The translations under genes and the position numbers were made by a program. Positions 32,702 to 57,489 of a stretch of 64,000 nt of DNA are shown here, one piece after another (positions within the stretch are counted from its first letter, which is position 1; every line of letters begins with the position of its first letter). The DNA is from Shimia sp. R9_2 (GTDB lineage: Bacteria > Pseudomonadota > Alphaproteobacteria > Rhodobacterales > Rhodobacteraceae). The stretch covers positions 1 through 64,000 of the forward strand of contig NZ_JAGHRO010000009.1 in assembly GCF_017743735.1 (NCBI RefSeq), written 5' to 3'. Below the pieces are notes generated by a model that worked only from the letters and a program-made list of their open reading frames with translations, was not told where the DNA came from and did not search any database.

Positions 32702-35700
32702 TCAGCGCCGTCTGTTTGAGCCGCCCGCGGTCATTTCGCGCGCCTGAGACAGGATGTCCTCGGCAAACTCCGCAGACACATCAAGGATTTGTGCAAGCTC
32801 GGTTGCGCTGCGGCGGGCCACGGCGCGCACCGAGGTGATGCCTGCGGTTTCCAGAACCGCCGCGCGCCCTTCGCCAATGCCGTGAAGCTCGCGCGTGGGG
32901 CGGTCGGGCAAAGTGGCGGCATTGAGGGTCGGATTTGTGGCTGGCGTCAAAACCCGCGCGTGGTCCGGAAGGCTGAGAAACGCGGTGCTGCTGGCATGGG
33001 TGCGCAGGCGCGCGGTGGCGCTTTCGCGGGGCAGGCGGGCCACGCTGTCAAGGCGGGGCTGCGCGATGGTGCCGACGGGCAGCTCGGTTGGCAGACGGGT
33101 GATGAGCGTGGCGCGCGCGGGCGTGGTTTCGCCTTTGTCTTTGCAGGGCGCGCATTCGCAGATGTCCTCCGGTGCGGTATCGGCGGGGGTGGGCACACAT
33201 GGGCTCTCTGGTGGCGGCAGCTGTGTGGCCACGGCGCGCGGTCGGAAGGCGACGGTGAAATCGCGCACGGTCATGCGGCCCGGCGCCTCCGAGAGGAAGG
33301 ACACCGGAATGTTTTGCGGCGCTTCAAGCTCTGCGGAGGCGGCCACCAAGGTGAGGATGGCGCTTGGCCCGAGCTCTATCTCGATTTCCGCCGTTGCCGC
33401 GCCTGCCGGAACTGTGCCGCGCAGGCGGGTGATCTCGGCCCCCTCAGATTGGATTGATGCGGCAAGGGGCGTGTCGATCTGCGCGCCTGTGCTGTCCAGC
33501 CAGCGGGCGGCAAAAACCGCCTCTCCTTGCGAAAGCTGCGCTTCGAGAGCGGCGGCAAAAGGCGCGTCAGCGATCACCTCAGCGGATTGGGACAGGATCA
33601 CAGAAGATCGGTCCGCCGTGATATTGGTGAAGGTGAGGCCCTCCGTGGCCGGAGCGATGGTCAGGGGCGGGTTCTCGAGGGTCAGCTCAGGAGAAAAGCG
33701 CCAGCCGCTCAGAAACTCAGTGGGGTCCACATCAAAGGCGAGCTCACTGAAATCGCCATTGCGCAGGCCGGTTGGCCCGCCCTCAAGGGAGATGGTATCC
33801 ACAAACAGGCGCTGGTTTGCGGGAGTGCGCAGGCGGACCTCCAGTTGGTCGGCATCCTCAGGGGCCATGACATCCAGTGAGGCAGACAGGATGGTGCGCA
33901 ACTGTGGGCCAGCCACGGCGGCCAGCTCCAGGCCGCTGTCAAAGGTGCCAAGAAACGGGGGCGGGGTCAGCACATCGGTGCGCGACAGGCCACAGCCGGT
34001 CTGACGCCAGATCAGCTCGATCACCGCACCGCGTTCAGGCGCGAAGCCGCGGAACACCGCGCGATAGGGGCAGCCGGGGGAGACTTTGACAATTTGCGAG
34101 AGTGCGCGGGGGGCGCTTTCCGCGTGACCAAGGCGCAGGAGCGTGACCGAAAGCGGCCCCGTGTCGCTGGGCACAGAGAAAGATTGCAGTGCAACCGCGC
34201 CGCCGCTGACGCTCCAGCCTTGTGGTTCATAAAGGTCATTTCCGGAGGCGCGATCCTCAAAGCCGCCATTGGTCAGTTGCTCACCGCGAGGGCAGGTTCC
34301 GGCGCTGCGCGCCGACAGAATACCATTGGCGGCCTCAGCAACAGAGCGGGACTCCAGCGCAAATTCCACCCGACCAAGGGGCTGGAACCGCTCAAGAGAC
34401 AGGAGGCTGCTTTCGGCGTCACGTCCAATTTCGGCTGAGACCGGGACGCGAAACACCGGCGAGGCGCGGCGGAAGCGGTGTGCGGCCATGAGCGCATCGG
34501 GCAGGCTGGCCGCGCGGGCCGGTCGCCATGACAGGCCGCCGGTGTCGCTGGTCTGCAGCTCTGCGGCTGCTTCGGTTTCCGGATGGACGTGCCAAGCGAT
34601 CGGCGCAGAGGTCGGCTCGACCACAAGCCAGATACGCTCTGCGCCGGCAGGCACGGTGATGGTCTGGCCCAGAGCGGTGCTGAGCCATCGCGGCCCGCCA
34701 TGGGCGGAGACGCCAAAGGTACCGGTGGCGGGTTGCGCAAGAAGCGAGCTTTCGCTGGGTTTGCCGTCAAAATCTTCGCGCAGGTCGACTTTGACGTCCG
34801 CCTGTCGCGCTTGTGTGGAGAGCAGAACATCCACCGCGTCGAGAATGGTCTCACCTGTGATTGTCACCGGCTGGGCGGCGGCGGTGCCGACCGCGAGCGG
34901 CACAGACTCCGGTGGGGTGCGATCCATGGTGGGGCCAAGGCTGATTTCGCTGCCCTCGAAGGTGCCATCAATCGCGATGTGTGTGCCGGTTGGGTCGATC
35001 TCCATATTGGGCGGCACGGTGATTTGCAGCAGGTCATCGCCTGCCTCAGACACGCCGTCATAGGTGTATTCCAACGTGCTTTCGCGCAGCCCATCGGGCA
35101 GACCGCTGCGGCGCTCCTGAATTTCGTAGAGCACTTCGACAGCCACCTGAGCGGTGGTGTCTGACTTGATGTGCAGGGGCAAAACCGCAAAGCCGCCTTC
35201 GGTTTCCGCCGCATCCAATGCGGCCTGCGCGAGCGTGGTAAGATCCGTGGTTTCGGTGACGGCGGAGAGCTCGCCGGGCAGGGCCCAGGCGGCGGGCTGT
35301 TGCCCCATGGCAAGCGTGACATTGCTGGCCACTGCGCGCAGCCACAGGGTGTTTATGATCGGTTGCGCGCCTGCTGATGTGCGGGCAATGCGCAGGCGCT
35401 GCACCGTCAGCCCCGGCAGGGGTTGTTCCCCGTCACTCAATGTGAATGTGCCGTTTTGCGACGGCACCGTGCCATTGGCTGCAACATCGACAAACAGGCC
35501 GCCCAGATCCACCTGCAGCGTTGCCCCCGCCAAGCCTGCCCCGCTGAGGCGGGAAAGCGTGCGAAAGCCGCCCAGATGGATCTCCGCCCAAGGCAGGCTG
35601 CCACCGCCGCGCACCTGTGACACGGCGGTTTCGCGACTGTCATCAGACGGGTCGCGGCCCGCGATGCTGCCATCGACCGGCGGGGCGGTAAAACTGATCT

Positions 35701-35854
35701 GCTCCTCGGCAGGGCCGATCCGGTTGGAGGCGGCAATCGGGGTCAGGCGCAGGCGGAAGGACGACAGCTGCGCGCCTTCGGGAAGGCTGCGCAGATAAAG
35801 GGTCTTGGTGCCACGGAAAAACCCTCTCGCCGGAAAGCGCTCGACCTGTTGCAT
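32702..35854 (-). CDS. Large fibre-like CIS protein with C-terminal helix-hairpin-helix
   Basis: 1050 residues, last gene of the CIS operon. Mostly beta-rich with Asp/Thr-rich segments. Two modules starting NGGFED (about 530) and NGDFSE (about 698), each followed by GW, resemble carbohydrate-binding beta-sandwich domains. A Cys cluster, CVPTPADTAPEDICECAPC, lies near 885-905. The C-terminal 60 residues (ELHGIGEGRAAVLETAGITS...) form a helix-hairpin-helix of the kind found in DUF4332-like proteins. It could be a tail fibre or surface adhesin of the particle; the helix-hairpin-helix may mediate packing or protein contacts rather than DNA binding. No close family recognised. Confidence 0.6.
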   Translation of the reverse strand: MQQVERFPARGFFRGTKTLYLRSLPEGAQLSSFRLRLTPIAASNRIGPAEEQISFTAPPVDGSIAGRDPSDDSRETAVSQVRGGGSLPWAEIHLGGFRTLSRLSGAGLAGATLQVDLGGLFVDVAANGTVPSQNGTFTLSDGEQPLPGLTVQRLRIARTSAGAQPIINTLWLRAVASNVTLAMGQQPAAWALPGELSAVTETTDLTTLAQAALDAAETEGGFAVLPLHIKSDTTAQVAVEVLYEIQERRSGLPDGLRESTLEYTYDGVSEAGDDLLQITVPPNMEIDPTGTHIAIDGTFEGSEISLGPTMDRTPPESVPLAVGTAAAQPVTITGETILDAVDVLLSTQARQADVKVDLREDFDGKPSESSLLAQPATGTFGVSAHGGPRWLSTALGQTITVPAGAERIWLVVEPTSAPIAWHVHPETEAAAELQTSDTGGLSWRPARAASLPDALMAAHRFRRASPVFRVPVSAEIGRDAESSLLSLERFQPLGRVEFALESRSVAEAANGILSARSAGTCPRGEQLTNGGFEDRASGNDLYEPQGWSVSGGAVALQSFSVPSDTGPLSVTLLRLGHAESAPRALSQIVKVSPGCPYRAVFRGFAPERGAVIELIWRQTGCGLSRTDVLTPPPFLGTFDSGLELAAVAGPQLRTILSASLDVMAPEDADQLEVRLRTPANQRLFVDTISLEGGPTGLRNGDFSELAFDVDPTEFLSGWRFSPELTLENPPLTIAPATEGLTFTNITADRSSVILSQSAEVIADAPFAAALEAQLSQGEAVFAARWLDSTGAQIDTPLAASIQSEGAEITRLRGTVPAGAATAEIEIELGPSAILTLVAASAELEAPQNIPVSFLSEAPGRMTVRDFTVAFRPRAVATQLPPPESPCVPTPADTAPEDICECAPCKDKGETTPARATLITRLPTELPVGTIAQPRLDSVARLPRESATARLRTHASSTAFLSLPDHARVLTPATNPTLNAATLPDRPTRELHGIGEGRAAVLETAGITSVRAVARRSATELAQILDVSAEFAEDILSQAREMTAGGSNRRR

Positions 35855-35892
35855 GCGTTCATTCTCCTCGCGGTGCCAAAGGCGCGTCGCTG

Positions 35893-36798
35893 TCAGACCT
35901 TGAGCAGGACCATCAGGCAGACATTTGCAAGATCATCGCCGTTGCCGATTGGGATGCGCTCGCGCAGCTTCAATGACAGTCGGTCAAAATCATGGTGTTC
36001 GACCAAGATTTCGGGCGGGTGGCGGTTGGTTGAGGTTGTATCGCGCTCTAGCGAGGGCGTGTTCACCGTCTTTACGGGCTGCATTTTGAGTTTCAGATCG
36101 TCCCAGTCTCCTTTGGCCTTGAGGCTGCCCACGGTACGTTCTTCGCGGCAGCAGCGCTCATACCAGGGCGAGTGGCAATAATCGCTGGGATCAAATGGGT
36201 CGTTGGGCGGCGCAAACATCGCCTTCCAAAGCTCGGTTTCCAGATCGCCAAGGCTGGTCTCATCGATGTATTCGACGCCGAGGTAGTCCAGCATTTCGCT
36301 CACCGGAATGCTGAAGGGCGTTTCGCCACGCTTTTCAATCTCGACGGTCTCAGTGCCGTTTGGCCCTTCCATCGAAATTTTCTTTTCGCTGGTGTGATAG
36401 AGAAAGAAGCGCGCCTCAACCTTACGCTTGTCATCATCATCGGCGCATATCACATCGAAGCTCTGCAGCTCATAAAGATCCACCAGCGGGCAGAGTTTGA
36501 GTTCGTGTTCGATGAGATTGGGCTCGTTAAACTCCAGCACTTTGAAGAGTTTCCGATAGCCTGTGTGTCCGGGGAATTTTTGCATGGCTTGCTCCAAAAA
36601 TTTGCTGAGAAGATCCTGGGCGGAATGGCCTTCGAGCGCGTTGCTGTCTTTGGACAGGTCAACTTCGGTCAGGGCGGCGAGGGCCTCGGCGATCTGTTTG
36701 TGGATTTCGGCGCGCATCTTGGATTGCATGGCATTCATGGCTGCGGCGCTGATGATCTGACCGGGTTCAAAGGTGGTGAAAGGGTCGTTGTCCAACAT
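35893..36798 (-). CDS. CIS structural protein of unknown family
   Basis: 301 residues from the ATG at 36798, after AAGGAG. The N-terminus (FEPGQIISAAAMNAMQSKMR) is helical, then a mixed domain with acidic runs (ADDDDKRKVEARFFLYH) and a Cys-rich stretch, YCHSPWYERCCREE. Its N-terminal pattern, placing a GQ-I-AA-MN element at the start, is like phage tail-fibre heads that join the baseplate. It sits between the gpI-type giant and the fibre-like protein. Function is inferred only from position. Confidence 0.5.
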   Translation of the reverse strand: MLDNDPFTTFEPGQIISAAAMNAMQSKMRAEIHKQIAEALAALTEVDLSKDSNALEGHSAQDLLSKFLEQAMQKFPGHTGYRKLFKVLEFNEPNLIEHELKLCPLVDLYELQSFDVICADDDDKRKVEARFFLYHTSEKKISMEGPNGTETVEIEKRGETPFSIPVSEMLDYLGVEYIDETSLGDLETELWKAMFAPPNDPFDPSDYCHSPWYERCCREERTVGSLKAKGDWDDLKLKMQPVKTVNTPSLERDTTSTNRHPPEILVEHHDFDRLSLKLRERIPIGNGDDLANVCLMVLLKV

Positions 36799-36812
36799 CA
36801 AAATCTCCTTTT

Positions 36813-39800
36813 CTAACAATCAATGTCTTCGGGCGGGGTGCCGTCGCGGGTGACGGTGAGGTCGATGCCCGCCGCCTTGAGGTGCTGTACGCCGCGCGGG
36901 CCGGGGCGATTGAAATCCTCAACTGTGCCGGTGAGTTCTGGACCGTTCACCCGCGCGCGGGCGTTTTCAAAGCGCGCGCCGTCAAAGGTGACGATCAGGT
37001 CGTAAATCCCCGGTGCGGTGTCACAGACCGCGATGGAAATGCGGTTGCCAAAGAGACCCGGCGCGATGGCGGACATCTCGATGAAACCGGGCAGGCCCGG
37101 ATCATTGAGGAAGGTGCGGGCGGCCTGCGTTTCGGTGCCGCCGGACAGCGCAACGGGGCGGGCGAAGGGGATGTCCGTGGCTTCAAAGCCGATGGGGATC
37201 ACATCGGCAGCGCGCGCCGTCACAAGCGTTGATGCGGAGCCTTCGGGGGCGAGCTGTGTGGTAAAGAGCTGCGGGTCAGTGGCTGGCTCGGTGACGAGGC
37301 CGGAGATGATCTCCGGTGCGTCATCTGCCAGGGCAAAGCGGTCCTGATCAAAGCGTGCGCCAAACCGTGCGGGCATGTCGAGCGGCAGGTTGATCTGCGC
37401 CCGTCCGGGCGTGTGCTGTGCCCAGCTGAGGGTGACATCGGTGGCCGTGCCGCCGTCTGCAGGGGCAAAGACCGGAGTGGATTTTGCCCGTGGGTTTTCG
37501 GCGAAACGGCAGGCGTCAAAGACGCCAACCTCAAGGCAGTCTCCGCCGGCGAAATGGCTTTCGTCAAAATCGGTGGCGTCGTAGCGGGCGGTCAGGCATT
37601 CCACAAAGACGCGCCGGTTTGTGCCCGGGGTGAGCGAGAGCGCAGCCGCTTGATCGACGGCGCGGGCAAAGACAATGGGTGTGTCCTGCGCCGTTTCATT
37701 GATACGCCGCAGCAGGGACAGTGCGCCAAACTCCGGCCCCTGATCCAGCACCACGCCGTTGAAGACTTGCGGCGTGGCCGGGGGGATCGCGGTGATCTGC
37801 AGATCATAAAGGAGGCGGATCCGGCGCGGCAGCAGGCTGTCACCTAGGCGTTTGGCCAGAATGGCCACGGGGCAGCCGAGGAATTGCGTGGCATTTCCTT
37901 CGATCTGCACCTCCAGCTCTTTATCACCGTTGGTGAGCAACAGGCTGGTGCCGGAACACTGCAACTTCCCGACAAACACCTCTTCGGGGAGCTGATCCGG
38001 CAAAGAGTGCGCGTCAGTGATCTGCACCGCTGGAGCGACATCGCGGCGGGTGATTTCGGTGAGTTCGATGACGTCAGAGCCAAAGCTGTCAGAGATCAGG
38101 ATGCCGCGCCGCCCGCTGAGGCCGGGGGCCATGAAGCGTGCAGAATCCAGCGGGACTTCCAGATGGGGCAGCAGGGGCAGGCCGTAGACGCGCGGGGTTG
38201 GGCTCAGCTTGGTGGAGACATTGAGGCCGTCTGCGCCTTCTGTGATTTCGGCGGTGTCACCGGGCAGAATGGCGCCGCGAATGCGCAAGGTGCGGCCCGT
38301 ATCTATGTCGACCAAGCCGGGGGAGTCTGTGCCTTGCGGTGCAGTGAAACGGACTGAGCCCGGGGCATCAGATGGCCCGGTGTTTTCGGCAAAGAGCGCA
38401 TCGCCGTGGTGCAGCGCGGTACCGGTTTGGGTGACCGGCTGTTGCGGGTAGTCGATCAGTTCGAAGTGGCGCAGGGGCTGCACACAAAGCGTGCTGTCTG
38501 CGGGCGCGGTCAGCAGGAGCTGGCCATCCGCGTTGAGGCTGGCGGTTTCCGGGAGCACCGCATTGATCGCTTCGGTGATTTCCTCAGGCGCGGTGGCGGC
38601 GGGGGCCTCTCCGGCAAGGTCTATGTCCAGCGGCAGGGCGTCATTCAGCGCGAGGCGCAGCACAGAGCGGTCGCTGAGGTCAACACCCTGGCGCAGGTCA
38701 ACGCTGCCGGTGATTTGACCGGCCTGCGCTGGTGTGCCGGTGGCGCTGCGCGTGGCCTCGCCAAAAAGCGCCTGAGTGGCGTCGCCGCCGGTGGCGGTCT
38801 CCACAACCAACCGGCTTGACGCGCCAAGGGAGGGGGAGGTCAGGAGCAGGTGGTCCGCGCTGATCTGCGCAATGGGTGCGCCAAGGGCTGCGTTGATGGC
38901 GGCAGCGATCTCCGCTCCGGTGGCTTGCGTTGCATCGGCGGCGGCACTGGCGCAGTCGATGTCTTGTGGCGGTGTGGCGTCAAAGCCAAGGCGCAGGAAA
39001 CGCGCGGTGCTCAGATCGATAGGGGCGGAGAGTTCGGCCAGCCCTGCGATTTGGGCGGGCTGTGCCGCCTGACCGGTATAGCTACGCTCTGGGGAGACGC
39101 CGAGAATGGCGGCGGTGGCGTCAGGCTCGGACGGGAGCAGAATGTCGAGGCGGCTGTCCGCGCCTTTGGTTGGGGCGGTGAGGAGCAGGTGGCGCCCGTC
39201 ATGGCTAGCGATGCCCGCGCCGAGCTTGAGATTGATGGCGACGACGATCTGGCCAAGGGTTGTGGCCGCGGGATCAAAACCGCGGCAGTCAATCTCCTGC
39301 GGCGTATTCCCGTCAATTGCCAGCTTCAGGTGGGCGGCAGCCGTCAGATCAATGCCGCCGGAGAGATCGTTGGTGCCGACAAAGGCCACTTGCCGCGCGG
39401 CAGATCCGGTGGCGGTTTGCGGGCCGGTGGCGAGCAACGCGGGTTGGGCATCGGTGGCCTGTGGGGGCAGAAGCGTGATCTGACTTGCGGCGCCGAGGGT
39501 GGGCGAGACCAGCTCAAGGCTGGTGCCGGAGCTGCGCGCGGTGTCTGCGCCAAGCGCTGAATTTATGGCCTCAAGGACCTCATCAAGCGTGGTGTGGCGC
39601 GGGCGCGGGCCGGCGCAGTTGATGTCAACCGCAGGGGCGCCATCCAGTTGCACACGCAGGAAGCCCCCTGCGCGCAGGTCGACGCCGCGGGAGAGATTGG
39701 CGGTGCCCTGCAAGGTGGCTGCGGCAGCGGGGGCGGATTGGGACACCGCGCTGAGGGTGCCGAGCACCGCCATGGCGGCGTCCTCTGCGATGGGCACGCG

Positions 39801-43153: not shown

Positions 43154-43620
43154 CAGGTTTGCTCCGTGGAAAAGAAGAACGGCACAACAAGATTGAGCGG
43201 CGTTGCGGTTTCAACGATTTTGAGCTGCATGTCGATGTCGACGCCGCCACGGTCATCGCGGCGCTGGCGCACATCGGCGCGCAGGATTTTCTCGACCCGC
43301 GGCTCCTGATTGATGGCGCGCAGGGCGTAGAGTTTGGCGAGGTTGCGGTTGGCCTCGGTGTTGGGCTCGCCGATCAGCTTGTGCAGGCGGGAGCCATAGG
43401 TGGGATGGCCCAGCTGGCGCAGCTCGCCCTCTGAGGTGAGCATCCGCAGCAAGAGCGCCTGCGCCATGTTTTCCGGGCCAAAGACGGTTTCCAGATCGCG
43501 CTGATTGGTTTCCGGACGCACCCGTGTGGAGAGGTCGCGCCCGCGATCGCGTGTCGTCTGATCCCGCCGGTTGCGCAGCAGTAGGAGGTCTTGCCCCAAG
43601 AGAGCATTGTCCCGTGTCAT
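43153..43620 (-). CDS. GPW/gp25 family baseplate wedge protein
   Basis: 155 residues from the ATG at 43620, behind GGGAGG. Family stretches are NMAQALLLRMLTSEGELRQLGHPTYGSRLHKLIGEPN and a C-terminal strand pair IDMQLKIVETATPLNLVVPF. In T4, phages and T6SS this protein nucleates the sheath on the baseplate. The open frame extends to 43785 over the PAAR gene, but that part is not expected to be used. Confidence 0.88.
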   Translation of the reverse strand: MTRDNALLGQDLLLLRNRRDQTTRDRGRDLSTRVRPETNQRDLETVFGPENMAQALLLRMLTSEGELRQLGHPTYGSRLHKLIGEPNTEANRNLAKLYALRAINQEPRVEKILRADVRQRRDDRGGVDIDMQLKIVETATPLNLVVPFFFSTEQT

Positions 43621-43636
43621 ATCAAGCCTCCCTGTT

Positions 43637-43969
43637 TCATGGCGGCCACGTGTCGGAGATGTAAGGCGCAGCCGGTGGGCCAAGGATGGTGAGCACGCCC
43701 GGCGGAGAAGGGATGAGATCGAGCATCCGCACCAGCGCTTTGCCCGCGATGCGCACGCCGGAGCTGGCGATGGGGCCGATGACAAGCGGATAGGGCACGC
43801 CGGTCAGCGAGTTGATCATGGTGCAGAGCGACCCTGAGGTTGCGAGCGGAAGCCCTCCGGCGGTGATCAGCGGCGGGAAGATGCCGACGATCGTGCCGGT
43901 GTCCGGTGGCCCCGCAGCGCCGGGGGTCACGATGACCGCACATCCAATTGTGACCGGTGGTCCCGGCAT
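43637..43969 (-). CDS. PAAR-like spike tip protein
   Basis: 110 residues, Gly/Pro-rich, with repeated short strands (TIGCAVIVTPGAAGPPDTG, LPLATSGSLCTMINSLTGVPYP) as in PAAR-repeat proteins that sharpen the spike. Behind GGAGGAAACC. It follows the gpV-type spike gene by 9 bp, the usual order. Confidence 0.8.
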   Translation of the reverse strand: MPGPPVTIGCAVIVTPGAAGPPDTGTIVGIFPPLITAGGLPLATSGSLCTMINSLTGVPYPLVIGPIASSGVRIAGKALVRMLDLIPSPPGVLTILGPPAAPYISDTWPP

Positions 43970-50132: not shown

Positions 50133-50552
50133 TTATGCGTTTTTCAGCGCGTTGAGATGGCCGACGATGGCGTCGATCAGGGACAGGATTTCGCCTTTCA
50201 CCTCGTCAATGGAGGGCAGGCCACCGACCACATCGGCCACATCGGTGATGGCGTCAAAGTCATCGGCGTTGTCGGGCAACAGGGCTTTGGCGGAGTTGAC
50301 AAAACCTTTGACCTGATCGGTGAATTCCGCCGCTTCGGCGAGACCGGGGATGGCGGAAACGTCGAGTTTCTCAACCTCGGATTTGAGCAGGTTCATCAGC
50401 TCGATCAGCTTGTTGAGCAGATTGTCGATCTGATCAGGAATAATGGCGCGCAGGGCGGCCACGGCGGGCTGGATCACGCCCACCTTGTCATCGAGAAAAT
50501 CCTTGAAATCTTGCAGGACCTCTTTGAGGTCTTCGAAGAGATTGTCGGCCAT
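50133..50552 (-). CDS. Small coiled-coil CIS protein
   Basis: 139 residues, almost wholly helical with Leu heptads (IDNLLNKLIELMNLLKSEVEKL; FVNSAKALLPDNADDFDAI). At 1.5 A per residue it would span about 21 nm as one helix, but it is short for a tape measure. It lies between the paralogous N-domain gene and the fusion gene. No family recognised. Confidence 0.5.
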   Translation of the reverse strand: MADNLFEDLKEVLQDFKDFLDDKVGVIQPAVAALRAIIPDQIDNLLNKLIELMNLLKSEVEKLDVSAIPGLAEAAEFTDQVKGFVNSAKALLPDNADDFDAITDVADVVGGLPSIDEVKGEILSLIDAIVGHLNALKNA

Positions 50553-50569: not shown

Positions 50570-51127
50570 TTAGGCGTTGGAGGTGTTGTTGAGGGCTTGC
50601 AGGCGGGTCAGCAGACCGGTGAGCGGCTCCACAAAGCGCTCAAGCCCGGTGTCAAATTCCGGCAGCAGATCGAGACCGTCGATCAGGTCATCGGTGAGGC
50701 TTTGCGCTTCGCTGAGGATGTCATTGTCCAGAAGGCCCACGGCCTCCGGTTCCACCGGCTCCTGATACTCGCGCAGCACCAGCGCGTAGGCGTAGCGGTC
50801 GGGTTTTCCCGCCACTTCGCGCAGGCGGAAATCGTCGATGAGGACGTTTTCAATCTCCGCATCCGCAACGATGTCGGAGATGAAGCTCACAGGTGCGCCA
50901 GCGTCGAAGGTTGCGGTGAGTTTTTCGAGGGTGTCTTTCGCATCGCGCCCGCTGGCCACACCGGCCACAAGGATCGAGGTCGCGTGGCGGCCCATGTTCT
51001 GGCAATAGCTGCCGTCCATTCCCGGGGCGCGGTGTTCGGCAAGGGCGCGGATGTCGCGCAATTTCAGGGTCTGAACCTGTGGGAGCGGGATATCATCAAG
51101 CATCGGGCGCATGGGCAGGCTCCTCAC
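50570..51127 (-). CDS. Baseplate-type protein, DNA-circulation-like N-domain (tube-baseplate adaptor)
   Basis: 185 residues. The core (about 20-140: CQNMGRHATSILVAGVASGRDAKDTLEKL, DIVADAEIENVLIDDFRL and YALVLREY) resembles the N-domain of Mu-type circularisation proteins and related eCIS baseplate proteins such as Afp7/Pvc7. It is a paralogue of the first 125 residues of the fusion protein at 50117. The last 45 residues are helical. Start overlaps the upstream gene by 4 bp. Confidence 0.6.
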   Translation of the reverse strand: MRSLPMRPMLDDIPLPQVQTLKLRDIRALAEHRAPGMDGSYCQNMGRHATSILVAGVASGRDAKDTLEKLTATFDAGAPVSFISDIVADAEIENVLIDDFRLREVAGKPDRYAYALVLREYQEPVEPEAVGLLDNDILSEAQSLTDDLIDGLDLLPEFDTGLERFVEPLTGLLTRLQALNNTSNA

Positions 51128-52344
51128 ACATCAATGCCGTGGCGGCGGGCTTCGTCCCGAAGGATGAGCGCCAGCGCGTCGGTCAGTGCCTCGCGGTCAA
51201 AGCCCGCGGTGGCGCGTGGCTTGGAGCGGTCTGGCAGTTCGGTTTGCGGCTCATCGGTGACGGCCTCCTGAAAGCGGGAGAGATGGGCGCGGTCGGACGG
51301 CGGCAGGATTTCGGCAAATGGCGGATCAAGATCGGGCTGCGCGGGCAGGGGCACAGGGGTGGCATGTGGCGGGCGGGACAGGGTTTCGCGCTCCAGCGGG
51401 TCCGCGCCGTGGATCGGTTCGCGATGAAGCTGCACCGGATCGGGGCTGTTTGAAGCGCGTGGGGGCGGAGAGAGCGGCGCGGCATTTGCAGGCTTGGGCT
51501 GCTTTGGGGATTGGGCAAAGGCGGATGGGGTATGTTTTCCTGCGTGCTTTGGGGCTTGCGCGCTTTGGGGATCTTTTGGGGCGCGCTGCGGAGGCGTCGC
51601 GGTGTCGTTTTGCGCGGCCTTTGACGGCTGTGCGTCGCGCGATGTGAGCGCGCTGAGGGTGGTGTGTGACGCCTGCGGGCCAGCGAGCAGGGATTGCCAA
51701 GGTGTTTTGGACGGCTGGTTAGATGAGGCCGGGAGGGCGCGCGGATGTTTTGGCGCCGCAGTGTGGGTGAGGGGAGCAAGCTTTTGCGCCGTTGTCTTTG
51801 CCCAAGGGTAGCTCAGCGCGGTGGGCAGGGGGCTGGCAGGCCTTGCTGTAAGAGGCTGCGCGGAAGGTTTGGAACGCGGTGTGGTTGGGCCTTTGCCAAG
51901 ATCTTCGGGATCGGTACCTGCATGCAGTCTGAGCGGGCCGCCGGAGAGGCGTGTTGGCAGTGTCTTGGCGGTTTCACAGCGGTGCGCCTCCGGTCTGGGG
52001 CGGGTGTCCGCTGGCGGGTGATGCCATGCTGGGGGCTGGCGTTTCTGCTTCGCCGCTAACTTCTGCGCCGGGGTTTGCTTGTAAGATGGCGTTTCCTTGG
52101 GGGCAGGTTTGCGCTCCGGTTCTGAGGTTTCCCAACGGGTCAAGCTGCGTTCCATGGCCTTGCGATCAGACAGCTCGGCGCAGGTTGAGAGCCATGTGAG
52201 ATCCGCGCCCGACGCCGACACGCGGCGCGCAGTGGCCTGCATCTTTTGCACGCGCTGGGGCGCAAGCTTGGGCACCGATCCAGCGGCGGCCAGAGCGGTT
52301 TGGCGCAGGCGTTGAGGGGCAGCGGAGGCGAAGGCGCGGGTCAT
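51124..52344 (-). CDS. Proline-rich, disordered protein in tape-measure position
   Basis: 406 residues with a short helical N-terminus (AQRVQKMQATARRVSA-like), about 300 residues very rich in Pro, Ala, Lys and Gln (for example KPAPKETPSYKQTPAQKLAA), and a helical C-terminus (FDREALTDALALILRDEARR). It sits between the chaperone-like gene and the baseplate adaptor, where contractile tails usually encode the tape measure. The composition is unlike a coiled-coil tape measure; a disordered filler of the tube or a cargo-linker is possible. Confidence 0.55.
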   Translation of the reverse strand: MTRAFASAAPQRLRQTALAAAGSVPKLAPQRVQKMQATARRVSASGADLTWLSTCAELSDRKAMERSLTRWETSEPERKPAPKETPSYKQTPAQKLAAKQKRQPPAWHHPPADTRPRPEAHRCETAKTLPTRLSGGPLRLHAGTDPEDLGKGPTTPRSKPSAQPLTARPASPLPTALSYPWAKTTAQKLAPLTHTAAPKHPRALPASSNQPSKTPWQSLLAGPQASHTTLSALTSRDAQPSKAAQNDTATPPQRAPKDPQSAQAPKHAGKHTPSAFAQSPKQPKPANAAPLSPPPRASNSPDPVQLHREPIHGADPLERETLSRPPHATPVPLPAQPDLDPPFAEILPPSDRAHLSRFQEAVTDEPQTELPDRSKPRATAGFDREALTDALALILRDEARRHGIDV

Positions 52345-52802
52345 GCTTCTGCCGCCTCCCGCCGTCCCATTTCAAGATAGAGCAGGATTTGCCCGATGGT
52401 GAGGCCACTGACCTCTTCGGGTGTCCAGCCAAATTCGCGGGCCAGAACAAAGCAGGCTTTGGCCAAGGGCGCCTGCACTATCTCCTCCAGCGCGTCGCGC
52501 GGCAGATCAATGCCGCTGATGCGGTTGACCTCCTCCACCAGATGGCGGGCCAGCCCCGCCGGAAGCTGACGCACCTCATCCAGAGACAAAGCGGGTGCCA
52601 CCAGCGCCTGCTGGATCATCAGCGCGGCGGAGAGGTTTTCATCCTCCTTGGCGGCGCGGGCGATGAGTTGCAGGTCTTTCACCGACAGGGGGCGCAGCTC
52701 CACCTGCTGCTCCCCGTCCTCGCCTTTGATCAGGTCGGCAGGGAGATCATGCAGATGCGTGGCCGAAGCCCCGGCCAGAAGCGCTTCGCTGGTGAGCGTC
52801 AT
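52341..52802 (-). CDS. Tail-assembly-chaperone-like protein
   Basis: 153 residues, helical, starting TSEALLAGASATHLHDLPA and ending with the Phe/Trp-Gly-Trp segment FGWTPEEVSGLTIGQILLYLEMGRREA, a pattern common in gpE/gp24-type tail assembly chaperones. It follows the tube gene by 6 bp, the expected place. Homology is suggested rather than clear. Confidence 0.6.
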   Translation of the reverse strand: MTLTSEALLAGASATHLHDLPADLIKGEDGEQQVELRPLSVKDLQLIARAAKEDENLSAALMIQQALVAPALSLDEVRQLPAGLARHLVEEVNRISGIDLPRDALEEIVQAPLAKACFVLAREFGWTPEEVSGLTIGQILLYLEMGRREAAEA

Positions 52803-52808: not shown

Positions 52809-53348
52809 TTACTCCTGATCTACGAAGGCCGGGCCAGCCGAGACGCCGCTGTCATCGTCAAAGTCTGCGATGTCGATGCTCTTGGCGCGGAAGCTGACTT
52901 TCTCCATGACGATGTCGTCTTCGGGCAGGGCAAAGGACCAGGTCTGAAATTTCACGCCATTCAGGGTGAGCCGCGCTTGGCCTTCGACCGCAGGGTCATT
53001 GAGCTGCAGCGTCATGTTGAATTCGGGCTGAAAGGTGCGGGCATTGTTGTCCAGAAAGGATTTGCGCCCCATCAGCAGGCCAAGCAGCGCACCGTTGATA
53101 TAGGCGCGGTCGCATTCGCCGCAGATGTTGATGTTGCCCTCATGCAGCGAGGTCACATGGCGAAAGCCGATTTCGTGAAAGGAACGCAGGTCGGTGTCGA
53201 CGGTGAATTTGACGCCGGTGACCCGGCCCACAGCGGTGGCGATTTCATAGCGCGCGATGATCGACTCGGCGTCGACGCCCGGCGGGGTGTCCAGCGGCGC
53301 AAGGGTGAGCGTGGCATCCGCCCCCGTAAAAACATTGGTGTTGGCCAT
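52809..53348 (-). CDS. Contractile tail tube protein
   Basis: 179 residues; all-beta with a FTGADATLTLAPLD start, GRVTGVKFTVDTDLRSFHEIGFRHVTSLHEG and FQPEFNMTLQLND in the middle, consistent with a gp19-like inner tube monomer. It directly follows the sheath gene. Only one tube gene and one sheath gene are present, unlike Afp or PVC, which have several. Confidence 0.78.
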   Translation of the reverse strand: MANTNVFTGADATLTLAPLDTPPGVDAESIIARYEIATAVGRVTGVKFTVDTDLRSFHEIGFRHVTSLHEGNINICGECDRAYINGALLGLLMGRKSFLDNNARTFQPEFNMTLQLNDPAVEGQARLTLNGVKFQTWSFALPEDDIVMEKVSFRAKSIDIADFDDDSGVSAGPAFVDQE

Positions 53349-53360
53349 TTATCTGGTCTC

Positions 53361-55043
53361 CTATTCGAGGAACATCGTGACTTTGATGAAGTCGATGCTG
53401 AACGTGGGGCGCAGGACGATGGTGACCCGGGCGATGCCGCGGATTTCGTCGTCGCGGGTGGCGGACACGTCGAGCTCGTAGCTCACCAGCTCTTCGTCCA
53501 GCACCATCTCTGCGAGGAAGGAATTGATCGTGGAGCGCATGGCTTCGCGGACGCGCTCGTTGTTGAGCAGACCGATGTAGGGGTTGGCCGCCGAGCGCAC
53601 GCCGATTTTGGCTTTGTCCACGATGCGCCGGGTGGTGATCTGATGCCAGGCGGTGTTGGTGGAGGTCGTGATGCCTTTCACCGTGCGGAAGCCGAGGCGG
53701 CTTTCCAGCGCAAGCACGCGGTTTTGCACCATCTGGCGCAGCTCGGCTTGGGTGAAGACATCTTCCAGACCTGCGACATTGAGCACCTTATTGGTGAGGC
53801 TGCGGTTGACCGGCGCGCCGGAGATCATCCCTGCAACGCAGGCCGCCGCATAGCCGCCGGAAAGGGTCACCGCGTCTCCGGTCACCACATCAGAGACGGT
53901 GACACCGGGCGCGACAAAGACGATGCGATCGGAGTTCAGCGTGTGATCAAGGATGTCATTGAGGGAGGCCCCCGGCGCGGAGCCGATCACCCCGATACGC
54001 TCGCGTTTGTTGGCATCAGAGCTGGCTGCGGCCACATGGGCGGAGAGGTCCGCGCCGATGGTGCTGGAGTTGTCCTGTCCGGCGGCGACAATGATGAAGG
54101 CGGGTTCGTTGGCCAGTTGTTCAAAGCCGTCGGTGTAGTTGCCACCTGTGGCCCCGTCGGTGCCGGTGGTGTTGGTGCCAGCGCCGAAGGTTTCAAAGGT
54201 GAAGGCATCGGCAAAGGTGGTGGGCGACTCCGCTGCGTTTGCGAGCGCGGTGCCGTCCACCAGATCCGAGCCGCCAGTGGCCTGATTGACCAGATCGACG
54301 AGATGCGCGCCGCTTGCCGCGGTAAAGACCTCTTCCAAGGCTTCGGTGCGCAGGGTGATCTTGGCGCTGTTGGCCGCTGGCACCACATAGGTGACCGTCA
54401 CCGTGTCGCCGACGGCGGGGGCTTCGCCTGCGGCAAATACCAGAGCGCCGCTTGCGGGGTCAATTTCCACTTGGCCTGCTGCCGGGGTGCCGGTAGCTCC
54501 GTGGACAACGGCGGGCGTGGTGGGGGTTGAGGCACCTGCCGCGAGGACAGACACGCTGTTGCGTACGCTTTCGGCAATGGTGGTGTGGGCGAGTTGCAAA
54601 CCAACCGCGCCGGTACCTGCGATTTCTTCCCCACTCACAACCGCGCTTTCCTCTGCGGCGGTGATGTTGATCTCCATGGTGTTGGCCCAGGAGCCGGGGG
54701 TTGCGGCGGTCAGGCGGCAGCAGTCTCCGCCCGCTGAGGCGATGAGAAAATCTGCGGCTGCGGTCGCGCCTGCAATGCGCACGGCCCAGACGTCACGTGC
54801 GCCGTGGTCATAGGCGAGATCAATCGCGCGGATCAGCGTGAGCTCCTGCCCGGGCGTCACGATTTCATCGGCGTCGCCGAACACCTCGCGGGCGGCTGCG
54901 GGGGAGCCAATGAGCACCGGCGTGTTGACCGGCCCTTTGTTGGCTGTCCCGACCATTCCGATGGCGCTGATGGATACAACGCCCGGAGTGATCAGGCCTT
55001 CTGGGCGGACGGCAATCGACACGCCGGGTAAGATCTGTTCCAT
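53361..55043 (-). CDS. Contractile tail sheath protein
   Basis: 560 residues. The N-terminus EQILPGVSIAVRPEGL and the region IGMVGTANKGPVNTPVLIGS are characteristic of the sheath N-domain. The C-domain has LESRLGFRTVKGITTSTNTAWHQI and REAMRSTINSFLAEMVL, ending in a strand that swaps between subunits (DFIKVTMFLE). A variable insertion domain occupies about 130-330. It is behind AGGAG and is the second gene after the promoter. Confidence 0.93.
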   Translation of the reverse strand: MEQILPGVSIAVRPEGLITPGVVSISAIGMVGTANKGPVNTPVLIGSPAAAREVFGDADEIVTPGQELTLIRAIDLAYDHGARDVWAVRIAGATAAADFLIASAGGDCCRLTAATPGSWANTMEINITAAEESAVVSGEEIAGTGAVGLQLAHTTIAESVRNSVSVLAAGASTPTTPAVVHGATGTPAAGQVEIDPASGALVFAAGEAPAVGDTVTVTYVVPAANSAKITLRTEALEEVFTAASGAHLVDLVNQATGGSDLVDGTALANAAESPTTFADAFTFETFGAGTNTTGTDGATGGNYTDGFEQLANEPAFIIVAAGQDNSSTIGADLSAHVAAASSDANKRERIGVIGSAPGASLNDILDHTLNSDRIVFVAPGVTVSDVVTGDAVTLSGGYAAACVAGMISGAPVNRSLTNKVLNVAGLEDVFTQAELRQMVQNRVLALESRLGFRTVKGITTSTNTAWHQITTRRIVDKAKIGVRSAANPYIGLLNNERVREAMRSTINSFLAEMVLDEELVSYELDVSATRDDEIRGIARVTIVLRPTFSIDFIKVTMFLE

Positions 55044-55068
55044 GGCTTACTCCTGATTTGACCGGTTC

Positions 55069-56082
55069 CTAACGACCGGCTCGAAGGTGATCCGCCTGAA
55101 GGCGGAGGTAGAGTACGGCCGGGGCTGCGAAGGCCGGCGCGTCATGACGGATGGCAAGAAAATCGCGGCCCGAGCGCAGGGTGACGGGCGTGTCAAAGCT
55201 GCGGGAATGGGGCACATAGAGATCGCGGATGAGGTTGGTGTCCCAGTCGCCAAGCTCAAAGGGCGCACCGGCAGGCCCCAGTGCGGCGAGAAACGCGGCT
55301 GTGCTGGGCAAGGTGACAATGGCCTGCAATTGCGGGTTGGGACCGTCAGCGATGGCGTTGAGAAAACTGTCGAGCGTGGCATGCAGAACCGGCGCGCCCG
55401 TGGCGCCGGACACCCCGCGTTCGAGCGTGACGGCGCCGCCTGGAATGCCGTTGAGAAAGGCCATGGCGTCCAGACCATTGAGGCGCAGGGCGCGTGGCCC
55501 GCCGTTTGGCCGCAGGATCAGAGAGGGCGCGCGCTCATTGTCCCAGCGCTGCATTGCGCCGGAAAGGATCTCAAGGCTGCTGTTGGTCCCGTCGCGTTCC
55601 TCCAGATCGGTGCGGTTGGGAATGCGCACGATGAAGCTGTCTGCGTCATCAGAATCCCGCGCGCGGTATTCATAGAGGAAAGGAAGCTCCGCCGTGCGCC
55701 GCCATGCATTGAGTGCAGAGACATGTTCCGCCGGGGCGCTGTCTCCGAGCGCGAGGCGCAGAAACCCCATGCTGCGCAGGCTTGCGGCGGCCCCCAGAAC
55801 ATTGGCCTGCACCGCATCAATGGAGGTGTTCACGGCATCGGGGGTGGTGTCCCAGAGTTCAAATCGCGCCACCCCGTCCAGCTGTATCCCGCGCAGGGCA
55901 GAGACGGTGACACCAAAGCGCGTGTCTGAACCACGGCGATCACCAAGGCCGACCCCGCGCCGCTTGGCTTCAAAAATCTGGACGGTGTTGTTGGGAAGAC
56001 CACCCGGTGCGACGGGCAGAAACGGGCTCAAATGGACGTTGAGCACTTCGTTGATGGCGTCATCAAGTGGCAGCGGCGGCAT
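55069..56082 (-). CDS. First CIS operon gene, DUF4255/Pvc16-like
   Basis: 337 residues from the ATG at 56082, with GAGGAG upstream. The open frame reaches 56154 but that would put the start within the -12 element. The N-terminal domain (MPPLPLDDAINEVLNVHLSPFL) plus its place ahead of the sheath gene suggest the tail-terminator class of eCIS proteins (Afp16/Pvc16, DUF4255). The sequence itself gives only a weak match, so the name is tentative. It may cap the sheath and tube at the distal end. Confidence 0.55.
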   Translation of the reverse strand: MPPLPLDDAINEVLNVHLSPFLPVAPGGLPNNTVQIFEAKRRGVGLGDRRGSDTRFGVTVSALRGIQLDGVARFELWDTTPDAVNTSIDAVQANVLGAAASLRSMGFLRLALGDSAPAEHVSALNAWRRTAELPFLYEYRARDSDDADSFIVRIPNRTDLEERDGTNSSLEILSGAMQRWDNERAPSLILRPNGGPRALRLNGLDAMAFLNGIPGGAVTLERGVSGATGAPVLHATLDSFLNAIADGPNPQLQAIVTLPSTAAFLAALGPAGAPFELGDWDTNLIRDLYVPHSRSFDTPVTLRSGRDFLAIRHDAPAFAAPAVLYLRLQADHLRAGR

Positions 56083-56129
56083 ATGCCCGCGCTCCTCTGT
56101 TGAAAATTGGTTTCTTAAAATCCATGCGC

Positions 56130-56145
56130 GGTAAGCGCGCTTACC
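56130..56145. promoter_or_regulatory. 16-bp perfect palindrome at CIS transcription start
   Basis: GGTAAGCGCGCTTACC. Its promoter-proximal edge is 9 bp downstream of the -12 element, where transcription should begin. A repressor site here would block the start directly, or it may form a hairpin in the leader RNA. Confidence 0.55.
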
Positions 56146-56153
56146 TGACATCA

Positions 56154-56169
56154 TGCAACTTTCGTGCCA
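56154..56169 (-). promoter_or_regulatory. Sigma-54 promoter of the CIS operon
   Basis: On the minus strand: TGGCACG-AAAG-TTGCA, matching the -24/-12 consensus completely. It lies 72 bp upstream of the first CIS start codon and 126 bp downstream of the rpoN stop. Confidence 0.85.
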
Positions 56170-56232
56170 GCGCGCATTTTGGCGTCAGTGGTCTGAAATC
56201 GCTGGGAAAGGTTGAGGCAGATGGGGCTGGTC

Positions 56233-56248
56233 GGGTCAAAAGTGACCC
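56233..56248. promoter_or_regulatory. Inverted repeat, candidate activator site
   Basis: GGGTCA-AAAG-TGACCC. Its near edge is about 64 bp upstream of the -24 element, within the normal range of an upstream activator site for an AAA+ activator. Confidence 0.5.
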
Positions 56249-56295
56249 ACGGGCTGCCCATCGGGTGTCGCTGTTCATGCGGCGATGCGATGATT

Positions 56296-57489
56296 TTAAT
56301 GAGAGCGGTGTTGCCTGCGTGCGTGCGCCGCCGGGATGTTTGCCTGTGCACGGTATTTCGCGATGGTGCGGCGCGGGATCGCAATGCCTGTGGACGCCAG
56401 AGCCTCGGCAAGCTGGGCGTCGCTCAGCGGATGGGTGCTGTCTTCATCAGACACCAGTTGTGTGATGCGGTGCATCAAATGCTCCGGTGACAGGGCATGG
56501 CCGCGCAGTTTCGGGCCAAGCAGGTGGCGGAGGGGAAGGACCTCTGCGTCGATCTCCACCGTGGCCCACTGAAAGACCCGGCTGAGCGTGCTTTTGTGGC
56601 GGGCCACATCGGTTGCGAGGGCGCACATGGTGATCGGGGTCAGAGGCGTTTTGGAGGTGAGATGGGTCTGTTGCAGGGCGACCAGCCGCTTGGCGATGGC
56701 CAGCAGGGTGGCATTGCGGGCGGAGAGCGCGTTTTCAAAACGGTCTGCTTCTTGCTGCGCCTTTGGGTCAATCGACGGCAGACGATTGAGGTGCGTGGCA
56801 GAGTCTGGATGGAGGCTGACAGACCAGTGCCCCTGCTTGCATTGGAGCAGCAGGTCGGGACCGCGGGTGGGCGGCGGCGGGGCGATGGCAAATTGCAGGC
56901 CGGGTTTGGGATCGAAGCTGCGCAGTTTCTTGAGACCGTTCAGGATGTCCTCGACGCTGCAGCCACAGAGGGCGGCCAGCTGTTTGGTGGTCTTGTGCTG
57001 CACTTCCGGCAGATGGTGCAGAAGTTGTGCGACAATCGGGTCGGTGTCTCCTGCGGCTTTGACCTGAAGGGCGAGGCACTCGGTCAGGGAGCGGGCAAAC
57101 AGACCTGCAGGTTCGATGGCTTGCAGTCGTTCAAGCACGGCAGAGCCGGTGGTGATGCTCACGCCTGCGGTGGCGCAGATGCGCTCAAGGCTTTCACCGA
57201 GCCAGCCCCAAAGTTCCAGCGCATCCAAAAACTGCAGCGCAATGGCGCGTTCGTCTGCTGTAAAATGCGCGTTGATCCACAAGGCGGCGTGTTCATAAAG
57301 GCCGCTGGTCTGCGCGATCTGTTCTGCTTGGGCTGCTGGCGCGACGCTTGGGTTTGTCAGCCCGAACTGGCGAATTTTGCGCGCGGTGGAGGTGCCGTCC
57401 ATCGACAGACACTCAACGATCTGCCGCATTTGCGGCGTCATGGTGAGTTTCTGCTGTGTCTGTGTGGTCTGGTCGAGCGATAGGGGCAT
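56296..57489 (-). CDS. rpoN: Accessory RNA polymerase sigma-54 factor
   Basis: About 397 residues from the ATG at 57489, with AGGGA upstream; the frame extends to 57582. Region I starts LDQTTQTQQKLTMTPQMRQIVECL. The core-binding part is about 70-240. The C-terminal RpoN box reads PRRTIAKYR, close to the consensus ARRTVAKYR. It is about 90 residues shorter than a usual RpoN; an acidic region II is lacking. It reads into the CIS operon and is separated from it only by the sigma-54 promoter. Confidence 0.9.
   Translation of the reverse strand: MPLSLDQTTQTQQKLTMTPQMRQIVECLSMDGTSTARKIRQFGLTNPSVAPAAQAEQIAQTSGLYEHAALWINAHFTADERAIALQFLDALELWGWLGESLERICATAGVSITTGSAVLERLQAIEPAGLFARSLTECLALQVKAAGDTDPIVAQLLHHLPEVQHKTTKQLAALCGCSVEDILNGLKKLRSFDPKPGLQFAIAPPPPTRGPDLLLQCKQGHWSVSLHPDSATHLNRLPSIDPKAQQEADRFENALSARNATLLAIAKRLVALQQTHLTSKTPLTPITMCALATDVARHKSTLSRVFQWATVEIDAEVLPLRHLLGPKLRGHALSPEHLMHRITQLVSDEDSTHPLSDAQLAEALASTGIAIPRRTIAKYRAQANIPAAHARRQHRSH

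What the first reader, a model, noticed from the sequence alone, without database searches (positions are those of the whole stretch)
32702..57489. Contractile injection system locus with its own sigma-54 factor and activator
A single-direction run of 16 genes encodes sheath, tube, gpD-, gpV-, PAAR-, gp25-, J- and I-type proteins but no capsid, terminase, lysis or integrase genes. It is preceded on the same strand by an rpoN paralogue and faced by a membrane protein plus sigma-54 activator gene. Contractile injection systems of the eCIS type are known, but a dedicated RpoN and activator bracketing one is, to my knowledge, not a described arrangement. One sheath and one tube, rather than several, and the giant fusion proteins also set it apart from Afp and PVC.
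Basis: partly seen in the sequence, partly recalled or inferred. Interest (0 to 1): 0.93.

Follow-up and report, generated by a model that had tools for sequence, protein, structure and literature searches.

The report
Injection machine carrying its own sigma-54
A plasmid-type DNA element carries genes for a predicted syringe-like injection machine together with the only sigma-54 gene found in its host's genome and one facing activator gene, which are predicted to work as a private on-switch for that machine in a genus whose 24 other genomes searched showed no sigma-54.

Summary
A 17-ORF, tail-only contractile injection system (CIS; 32702-56082, minus strand) follows rpoN (56296-57582) and is faced by a sigma-54 activator with a membrane-protein gene (30375-32691). 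The same block occurs in Yoonia sediminilitoris and Roseobacter insulae. This RpoN is no paralogue: it is the only sigma-54 found in the 4.47 Mb genome, and 0 of 24 congeners have one. The activator is the only one of 8 activator-type proteins examined with a GAFTGA-type contact loop (here GAFTDA). The genome's only perfect -24/-12 site (56154-56169) heads the CIS operon; R. insulae has it perfect, Yoonia with 2 mismatches. The contig bears Rep3/ParA/ParB-like genes. Best reading: a portable, closed sigma-54 circuit dedicated to one injection machine. Related GA[FY]TDA activators also sit beside some other CIS and T6SS loci. Sigma-54 control of T6SS is known; a CIS bringing its own sigma-54 was not found in my paper searches. 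Regulation is inferred, not measured. Two eCIS core domains were not found in the operon, so I do not file it as a canonical eCIS.

The parts
56296..57582 (-). rpoN, only sigma-54 match of the genome (the TTG start is probably too far upstream; database copy P0123 is 402 aa)
   Evidence: Pfam AID 26.6, CBD 109.9, DBD 111.9 bits; only Sigma54_DBD in G000; RpoN box PRRTIAKYR; P0123
56233..56248 (.). palindrome GGGTCAAAAGTGACCC, candidate activator binding site (hypothesis)
   Evidence: similar palindromes near the rpoN end in L034 8687 and L035 8677; pattern not enriched genome-wide
56154..56169 (-). -24/-12 promoter TGGCACGAAAGTTGCA
   Evidence: only 0-mismatch site in the window and the genome; conserved block in the three aligned intergenic regions
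55069..56082 (-). tail terminator-like first gene (true start probably residue M25 of the 56154 ORF)
53361..55043 (-). contractile sheath
   Evidence: PF04984 43.4 bits; PHROG 279 tail sheath 1.4e-46
52809..53348 (-). tail tube (predicted)
   Evidence: Foldseek best hit R-type bacteriocin tube 6gkx, prob 1.00, E 7.3e-4, model pLDDT 61.6; no Pfam or PHROG match
52341..52802 (-). tail assembly chaperone-like
   Evidence: PF10109 E 1.1e-4, below cut-off
51124..52344 (-). variable Pro/Ala-rich protein
   Evidence: 28-32% identity in the two relatives
50570..51127 (-). baseplate/hub accessory (DNA_circ_N-like)
   Evidence: PF07157 26.1 bits; PHROG 184 baseplate hub 9.9e-6
50133..50552 (-). conserved small CIS protein
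   Evidence: 84-85% in the two relatives
46215..50117 (-). 1300-aa protein with OmpA and PG_binding_1 domains
   Evidence: endolysin PHROGs match only the PG-binding stretch
45786..46205 (-). small protein, not matched in the two relatives
44776..45789 (-). gpD/gp27-type hub
   Evidence: PF05954 28.9 bits, just below cut-off; profile hits 9gtr, 7b5h, 7aef
43979..44779 (-). gpV/gp5-type spike
   Evidence: PF04717 29.8 bits; 7b5h E 1.2e-9
43637..43969 (-). tip protein at the PAAR position (unconfirmed)
   Evidence: 87-88% in the two relatives; no profile match
43153..43785 (-). gp25-type baseplate wedge (real start probably downstream; relatives' ORFs are 156 aa)
   Evidence: PHROG 975 1.1e-21
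41558..43153 (-). baseplate J
   Evidence: PF04865 52.6 bits
36813..41558 (-). 1581-aa baseplate/fibre-type protein
   Evidence: PHROG 1160 baseplate 7.5e-5
35893..36819 (-). conserved CIS protein of unknown role
   Evidence: 63-71% in the two relatives
32702..35854 (-). 1050-aa last protein of the operon
   Evidence: 45-47% in the two relatives; only an HHH match below cut-off
31270..32691 (+). sigma-54 activator (bEBP), GAFTDA loop, Fis-type HTH
   Evidence: PF00158 204.4 bits
30375..31310 (+). membrane protein with three hydrophobic segments, upstream of and overlapping the activator ORF
   Evidence: 52-53% in the two relatives
12425..16665 (.). plasmid maintenance: ParB-like, ParA, Rep3 initiator
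   Evidence: ParB_N below its cut-off; Rep3 about 80% to Paracoccus plasmid initiators

Best explanation
A plasmid-type replicon carries genes for a predicted tail-only contractile injection system together with a sigma-54 gene and a facing activator gene, and these two regulators with the -24/-12 site at the head of the operon are predicted to form a closed private switch for this one machine. Shown by sequence: one sigma-54 match in the genome; one of eight examined activator-type proteins with a sigma-54-contact loop; one perfect -24/-12 site in the genome, at the CIS operon; conserved order rpoN, promoter, CIS, activator, membrane protein in three genera. Inferred: RpoN-polymerase sits closed at the promoter and gives almost no leak; the activator, perhaps bound to a GGGTC-N6-GACCC-type palindrome upstream, opens it by ATP hydrolysis; the membrane protein encoded with the activator likely passes an envelope signal to it. 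Because the other genomes of this genus show no sigma-54, the element would have to bring both parts to be regulated after transfer.
For: Only Sigma54_DBD match in G000; 1 of 25 genomes of the genus has one, this one; 42 of 120 family genomes match, 38 over the cut-off. Full order in Yoonia sediminilitoris and Roseobacter insulae, each with a single over-cut-off sigma-54. GAFTxA loop in 1 of 8 own, 1 of 6 R. insulae and 1 of 5 Yoonia activator-type proteins, each time the CIS one. Perfect promoter: 1 in the window, 1 in the genome; single-base shuffles of the intergenic stretch as good: 0 of 5000 for window and R. insulae, 63 of 5000 for Yoonia. CIS-linked RpoNs and one metagenomic row form a clade, support 100/100. 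Rep3, ParA and ParB-like proteins of the window have no match on the two other contigs, so the block is conserved across different backbones. Activators of this clade lie by other CIS or T6SS loci.
Against: No expression data. At up to 1 mismatch the genome holds 71 sites against 29 for the reversed pattern, so further targets are possible. Yoonia's CIS promoter has 2 mismatches while 6 perfect sites lie elsewhere in that genome. The palindrome is not enriched genome-wide (11 against 17 for the reversed pattern) and lies at different distances in the three species. Most loci of CIS relatives show no rpoN within the stretch held (2 of 80 do). The NorR change equivalent to GAFTDA (G266D) is constitutive (PMC2941729, passages), so the activator might not be switched through its N-terminal domain. 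Three weak AAA matches were not examined for a loop. Three clusters are a small sample.
Confidence: 0.79

Rival explanations
1. The RpoN is a general accessory sigma-54 picked up by the plasmid; it serves several operons and its place next to the CIS is incidental.
For: 71 near-consensus sites at up to 1 mismatch versus 29 for the reversed control; 227 plasmid records hold a relative of this RpoN.
Against: Order conserved in three genera on different backbones; none of the 7 other activator-type proteins examined has a contact loop; the only perfect site is the CIS promoter.
Confidence: 0.11
2. The block is a domesticated prophage tail module (R-type tailocin) whose rpoN is a hitchhiker, with DNA-damage control and lytic release rather than sigma-54 control.
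For: Tube and terminator folds are closest to phage and R-type bacteriocin parts; the 1300-aa protein has weak endolysin PHROG matches on its peptidoglycan-binding stretch.
Against: No separate lysis gene, integrase or repressor family among the CIS ORFs scanned; the sheath has only under-60% matches in 24 phage records, none covering 80% of it; hub and spike match eCIS/tCIS structures.
Confidence: 0.06
3. The activator with a GAFTDA loop is constitutively active, so the system is set by the amount of RpoN or activator rather than by a signal.
For: G266D in NorR, the same change, is fully constitutive (PMC2941729, passages); Paraglaciecola's CIS-linked activator lacks the N-terminal domain.
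Against: The membrane protein is conserved upstream of the activator in the three roseobacter-type clusters, which suggests signal input. This rival modifies rather than replaces the private circuit.
Confidence: 0.3

Closest known systems
T6SS clusters controlled by RpoN and a cluster-encoded activator (VasH/Sfa2 type)
   Same: A contractile machine transcribed by sigma-54 with an activator encoded in the cluster (PMC10482370, passages); two T6SS loci carry activators of the same GAFTDA clade
   Different: There, as I understand it (general knowledge), the sigma-54 is the host's own RpoN; here the cluster carries the genome's only sigma-54 match, and no VipA/B or TssF family was found in it
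eCIS (Afp, PVC, AlgoCIS) and the Anabaena thylakoid CIS
   Same: Sheath, hub, spike, gp25, J, terminator-like protein, no capsid found; hub and spike match 7b5h, 9gtr, 7aef
   Different: One sheath and one tube, hub and spike as separate proteins, no AAA ATPase and no eCIS_core domain found in the operon; the conserved eCIS regulator named in PMC8213781 (passages) is GerE/LuxR-type
Plasmid sigma-54 sets of Rhodobacterales (Paracoccus pantotrophus pPAN2, Gemmobacter fulvus p2)
   Same: rpoN close to an annotated sigma-54 activator and metabolic operons on a plasmid; pPAN2 has a TGGCACG-N4-TTGC site between rpoN and its acetoin dehydrogenase operon
   Different: Metabolic cargo; their RpoNs are 34-35% identical to this one
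Specialised rpoN copies of Rhodobacter sphaeroides (recalled, no call)
   Same: A sigma-54 copy dedicated to one function
   Different: There several rpoN copies coexist; here only one is found

Membership tests
canonical eCIS | Phage_sheath_1 sheath | tested here: met
   43.4 bits, cut-off 31.4
canonical eCIS | tail tube (Phage_T4_gp19) | tested here: inconclusive
   no Pfam hit; fold match to R-type bacteriocin tube from a low-confidence model
canonical eCIS | hub and spike (Phage_GPD, gpV) | tested here: met
   spike over, hub just below its Pfam cut-off; both match eCIS/tCIS chains
canonical eCIS | GPW_gp25 and Baseplate_J | tested here: met
   J 52.6 bits; gp25 below its Pfam cut-off but PHROG 975 1.1e-21
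canonical eCIS | PAAR tip | tested here: inconclusive
   right position, no profile match
canonical eCIS | DUF4255 tail terminator | tested here: inconclusive
canonical eCIS | AAA+ ATPase in the operon (Afp15) | tested here: not met
   no AAA family and no Walker A motif in the 17 ORFs; rest of the genome not searched. A tblastn with two eCIS AAA proteins found nothing in the window, but also nothing in the other loci of that file, so its power is unknown
canonical eCIS | eCIS_core / DUF4157 in the operon | tested here: not met
   no PF13699 hit in the 17 ORFs; that PF13699 is the former DUF4157 is recalled
canonical eCIS | particle released outside the cell | not testable with these tools
   needs microscopy
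T6SS | VipA/VipB sheath, TssF, membrane complex | tested here: not met
   none among the Pfam hits of the cluster; VipB and TssF do ring in G172 and G377
complete prophage | capsid, terminase, integrase, lysis genes | tested here: not met
   no capsid, terminase or integrase family in the CIS ORFs; weak endolysin PHROGs only on the PG-binding stretch of the 1300-aa protein
sigma-54 factor | AID, CBD, DBD domains and RpoN box | tested here: met
   the NCBIfam rpoN_sigma score 233.6 is below its 277.35 cut-off
sigma-54 enhancer-binding protein | AAA+ with GAFTGA loop and HTH | tested here: met
   PF00158, HTH_8, loop variant GAFTDA; PMC4641369 (passages) lists GAFTDA and GAYTDA among variants that would keep activity
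private sigma-54 circuit | transcription depends on this RpoN and activator | not tested
   needs mutants

The most novel reading that the evidence does not exclude
The locus is a self-contained, transferable sigma-54 circuit: one sigma factor, one activator, one promoter and one target machine, closed upon itself on a plasmid and free to diverge because the host has no other sigma-54. It shows how an injection machine can enter sigma-54-free bacteria with its own tight, leak-free switch, and it belongs to a wider, undescribed family of GA[FY]TDA activators tied to contractile machines (eCIS, CIS and T6SS) in several phyla.
Probability: 0.64. Interest if true: 0.83.

Novelty: new variant of a known kind. 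Interest (0 to 1): 0.76.

Why it matters
Sigma-54 is normally a chromosomal factor shared by many operons. Here a plasmid-type element in a genus otherwise without sigma-54 appears to carry the complete sigma-54 apparatus for one injection machine. That gives a natural case of an orthogonal transcription circuit, predicts how this CIS is switched, offers a two-gene handle to turn it on in the laboratory, and suggests that some scattered rpoN genes of Rhodobacterales are passengers of the operons they serve. It also points to a second regulator class, besides the GerE type, for the eCIS field.

Tried and rejected
Tried without result or rejected: (1) HK/RR pair 27048-30003 as part of the circuit: not conserved in the block. 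(2) GGGTC-N6-SACCC as a regulon-wide site: 11 hits against 17 for the reversed pattern; kept as hypothesis only. (3) Sigma-54 promoters before rpoN or before the membrane protein: best sites have 4-5 mismatches in the three species, so no sigma-54 autoregulation is claimed. (4) Paraglaciecola and Nitrospirales CIS promoters: best sites have 3 mismatches, 667 and 766 of 5000 shuffles as good, so not claimed. (5) GAFTDA as a CIS-only mark: rejected. D. vulgaris has GAFTDA and GAYTDA activators for other functions (PMC4641369, passages), G322 and SKS4.bin47 carry it with no CIS recognised nearby, one of the six best rows (G146) has GAFTGA, and two GAFTGA controls fall inside the wider clade. (6) Common plasmid backbone: window Rep3, ParA and ParB-like proteins had no match at 1e-6 on the two other contigs; a ParA-motif scan of them found nothing, so whether they are plasmids is open. 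(7) PDB sequence profiles for tube, first gene and last protein gave nothing useful, and for the hub accessory only E 0.11 and worse. (8) Foldseek on the first gene also lists many low-scoring virus-capsid jelly rolls; only the N-terminal terminator match is used. (9) Viral contigs: 4 loci, not followed beyond a profile scan for activator and membrane protein. (10) No AAA tblastn hit anywhere. (11) A first loop-counting script returned nothing because of a pattern error and was corrected. (12) The TGA reported for Yoonia's activator lies at the upstream edge of the match; the frame is open over the part aligned.
Full report

The sigma-54 is alone. Pfam Sigma54_DBD matches once in the 4.47 Mb genome (25 contigs, completeness 100, contamination 0.12), at 56311-56763. 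Of 25 genomes of the genus only this one has a match; of 120 family genomes 42 match, 38 over the cut-off, and the window's is among the weaker ones.

The block is conserved. A scan of one genome per species (GTDB r220; 94 loci confirmed, 80 kept) found sheath relatives in many phyla. Of the 80 loci, which reach at most 10 kb to each side and are often shorter, only those of Yoonia sediminilitoris (sheath 90%) and Roseobacter insulae (69%) show rpoN beside it; two others, Paraglaciecola and a Nitrospirales MAG, show an activator. In the first two the order is rpoN, CIS genes, then convergent activator and membrane protein, over about 28 kb; one window ORF, 45786-46205, has no counterpart. Each of those two genomes has one over-cut-off sigma-54; Yoonia has a further match at 21.1 bits, below the cut-off. 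Three other family genomes hold partial sheath matches (30-41%), are not among the sigma-54 genomes, and were not studied. Against the window, RpoN is 40-42% identical in the two relatives; only the variable protein 51124-52344 is lower (28-32%), while the tube is 87-94%, the sheath 69-90% and the activator 60-63%. The three CIS-linked RpoNs with one metagenomic protein form a clade at 100/100.

The activator is the only one seen with a contact loop. The own genome has 13 Sigma54_activat matches. I examined the 8 proteins L002-L009; three weak matches (E 7e-6 to 3e-4) were left out. Only the CIS activator has a GAFTxA loop, here GAFTDA. Among proteins found by similarity to it, the same holds for 1 of 6 in R. 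insulae and 1 of 5 in Yoonia, where one further protein has a degenerate AAFRGA. From general knowledge (recalled), Rhodobacterales NtrC-type proteins that work without sigma-54 lack this loop.

The promoter. TGGCACGAAAGTTGCA at 56154-56169(-) is the only perfect match to TGGCACGNNNNTTGCW in the window (17 matches at up to 2 mismatches, no more than shuffles give) and in the genome. By my own arithmetic with equal base use about one perfect match per genome is expected, so its place matters: within the 213-base stretch between rpoN and the first CIS start, 0 of 5000 single-base shuffles did as well. R. insulae has a perfect copy at the same place (0 of 5000) and Yoonia one with 2 mismatches (63 of 5000). 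The -24/-12 element stands out as a shared block in the alignment of the three intergenic regions. R. insulae has 3 perfect sites genome-wide, one of them at the CIS; Yoonia has 6, none at the CIS. At up to one mismatch the own genome has 71 sites against 29 for the reversed pattern, so other targets are not excluded. The ORF start at 56154 overlaps the -12 element, so the real start is probably residue 25 (56082), which has an AGGAG-type site before it and fits the relatives' starts.

Replicon. Elsewhere in the window lie ParB-like (below its Pfam cut-off), ParA and Rep3 initiator genes (12425-16665); the Rep3 protein is about 80% identical to Paracoccus plasmid initiators, and 818 plasmid records match. 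The contig is 146,531 bases. These proteins have no match on the Yoonia or R. insulae contigs, which I hold whole in pieces.

Wider family of activators. With five CIS-linked activators as query, 26 of 50 CIS-bearing genomes had a match at E <= 1e-70; the list was cut. Loops were read only for fetched loci: of 20 distinct ones, 10 GAFTGA, 5 GAFTDA, 3 GAYTDA, 1 GSFTGA, 1 GAYTGA. Of the six best rows five have GA[FY]TDA and one (G146) GAFTGA. Beside a CIS lie those of Paraglaciecola and the Nitrospirales MAG, Desulfopila sp. IMCC35006 (sheath and AAA proteins) and Neoroseomonas lacus (sheath, AAA and eCIS_core); SKS4.bin47's does not within the 20 kb read. A blinder test, 398 genomes of the phylum with an 8-row profile at E <= 1e-112, gave 4 genomes besides the own (at most 4 candidates per genome appear scored in the rows shown, so a lower bound). 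All four have GAFTDA; one lies by an eCIS (eCIS_core, Tail_P2_I), two by T6SS loci (VipB, TssF), one (G322) by nothing recognised among the ORFs scanned. On a tree of 34 activators, 11 of 12 GA[FY]TDA rows form a clade at 95/93; Nitrospirales falls just outside, next to a GAFTGA control, and a second GAFTGA control is the next neighbour. Eight of the twelve were found through CIS genomes, so only the four count as blind.

Mechanism. I commit to a closed sigma-54 circuit. Established knowledge of sigma-54 says that the holoenzyme is inert without an activator, which suits a costly machine. The activator, the only examined protein with a sigma-54-contact loop, would bind upstream, perhaps at GGGTCACTTTTGACCC, and open the promoter. 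The membrane protein, encoded just upstream and overlapping the activator ORF, is the likely signal input. The D in GAFTDA equals NorR G266D, which escapes repression by its regulatory domain (PMC2941729, passages), so control may lie in activator supply or in the membrane protein rather than in the activator's N-terminal domain.

What it is and is not. It works like an eCIS and its hub and spike match solved eCIS/tCIS chains, but no AAA ATPase and no eCIS_core domain were found in the operon, two domains that PMC8213781 (passages) lists as core; I therefore call it an eCIS-like CIS. Sigma-54 control of T6SS through a cluster-encoded activator is known (PMC10482370, passages). For a CIS with its own sigma-54 my searches found nothing: 'extracellular contractile injection system' with 'sigma-54' gave one paper, on Geobacter biofilms (listing only); 'contractile injection system' with Rhodobacteraceae and rpoN none; with roseobacter three (listing only); 'contractile injection' with RpoN six (listing only, mostly T6SS reviews); with sigma factor, plasmid and Alphaproteobacteria one, on gene transfer agents (listing only). 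PMC8213781 names GerE as the first conserved eCIS regulator, and its main text has no hit for sigma or rpoN (passages). Supplements and subscription papers were not seen.

Context. Two Rhodobacterales plasmids carry rpoN near an annotated sigma-54 activator and metabolic operons. Of 20 rpoN neighbourhoods fetched, chosen among the matches mostly on long contigs, 5 had a GAFTGA activator in the stretch held, and one (L254) is an rpoN, promoter-like site, oligopeptide transporter, activator set. Portable sigma-54 sets may thus be a recurring device in a family that often lacks sigma-54; the CIS is the most elaborate case seen here.

Noticed in passing
L239 (Paracoccus pantotrophus pPAN2), 5122-14715: Plasmid rpoN, annotated sigma-54 activator and acetoin dehydrogenase operon, with a TGGCACG-N4-TTGC site at 13471(-) between rpoN and the operon: another likely self-contained sigma-54 set.
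   Followed up: partly
L240 (Gemmobacter fulvus p2), 11818-14984: Plasmid rpoN directly followed by an annotated sigma-54 activator, near monooxygenase genes.
   Followed up: no
L254 9477-18606: rpoN, -24/-12-like site at 10929, oligopeptide ABC transporter genes and a GAFTGA activator in one run.
   Followed up: partly
window 12425-16665: ParB-like, ParA and Rep3 plasmid maintenance genes; Rep3 is close to those of Paracoccus plasmids.
   Followed up: partly
window 57891-62882: RTX/CHRD-domain protein and ABC transporter on the plus strand next to rpoN, a type I secretion-like pair.
   Followed up: no
L221 and L205 (Neoroseomonas lacus): eCIS with sheath, AAA ATPase and two eCIS_core proteins, ended by a convergent GAYTDA activator, besides another CIS in the same genome (L094).
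   Followed up: partly
L215 and L219/L220: T6SS loci (VipB, TssF) with adjacent GAFTDA activators.
   Followed up: partly
L011, L012, L013: Partial sheath matches (30-41%) in three other family genomes with longer sheath-type frames (783-850 aa) and no sigma-54 match.
   Followed up: no
window 46215-50117: 1300-aa CIS protein joining a hub-accessory-like N-terminus, an OmpA domain and a peptidoglycan-binding domain; possible cell-wall anchor.
   Followed up: no
window 51124-52344 and 45786-46205: The least conserved proteins of the operon (28-32%, and unmatched in the two relatives); candidates for variable cargo or length-setting parts.
   Followed up: no
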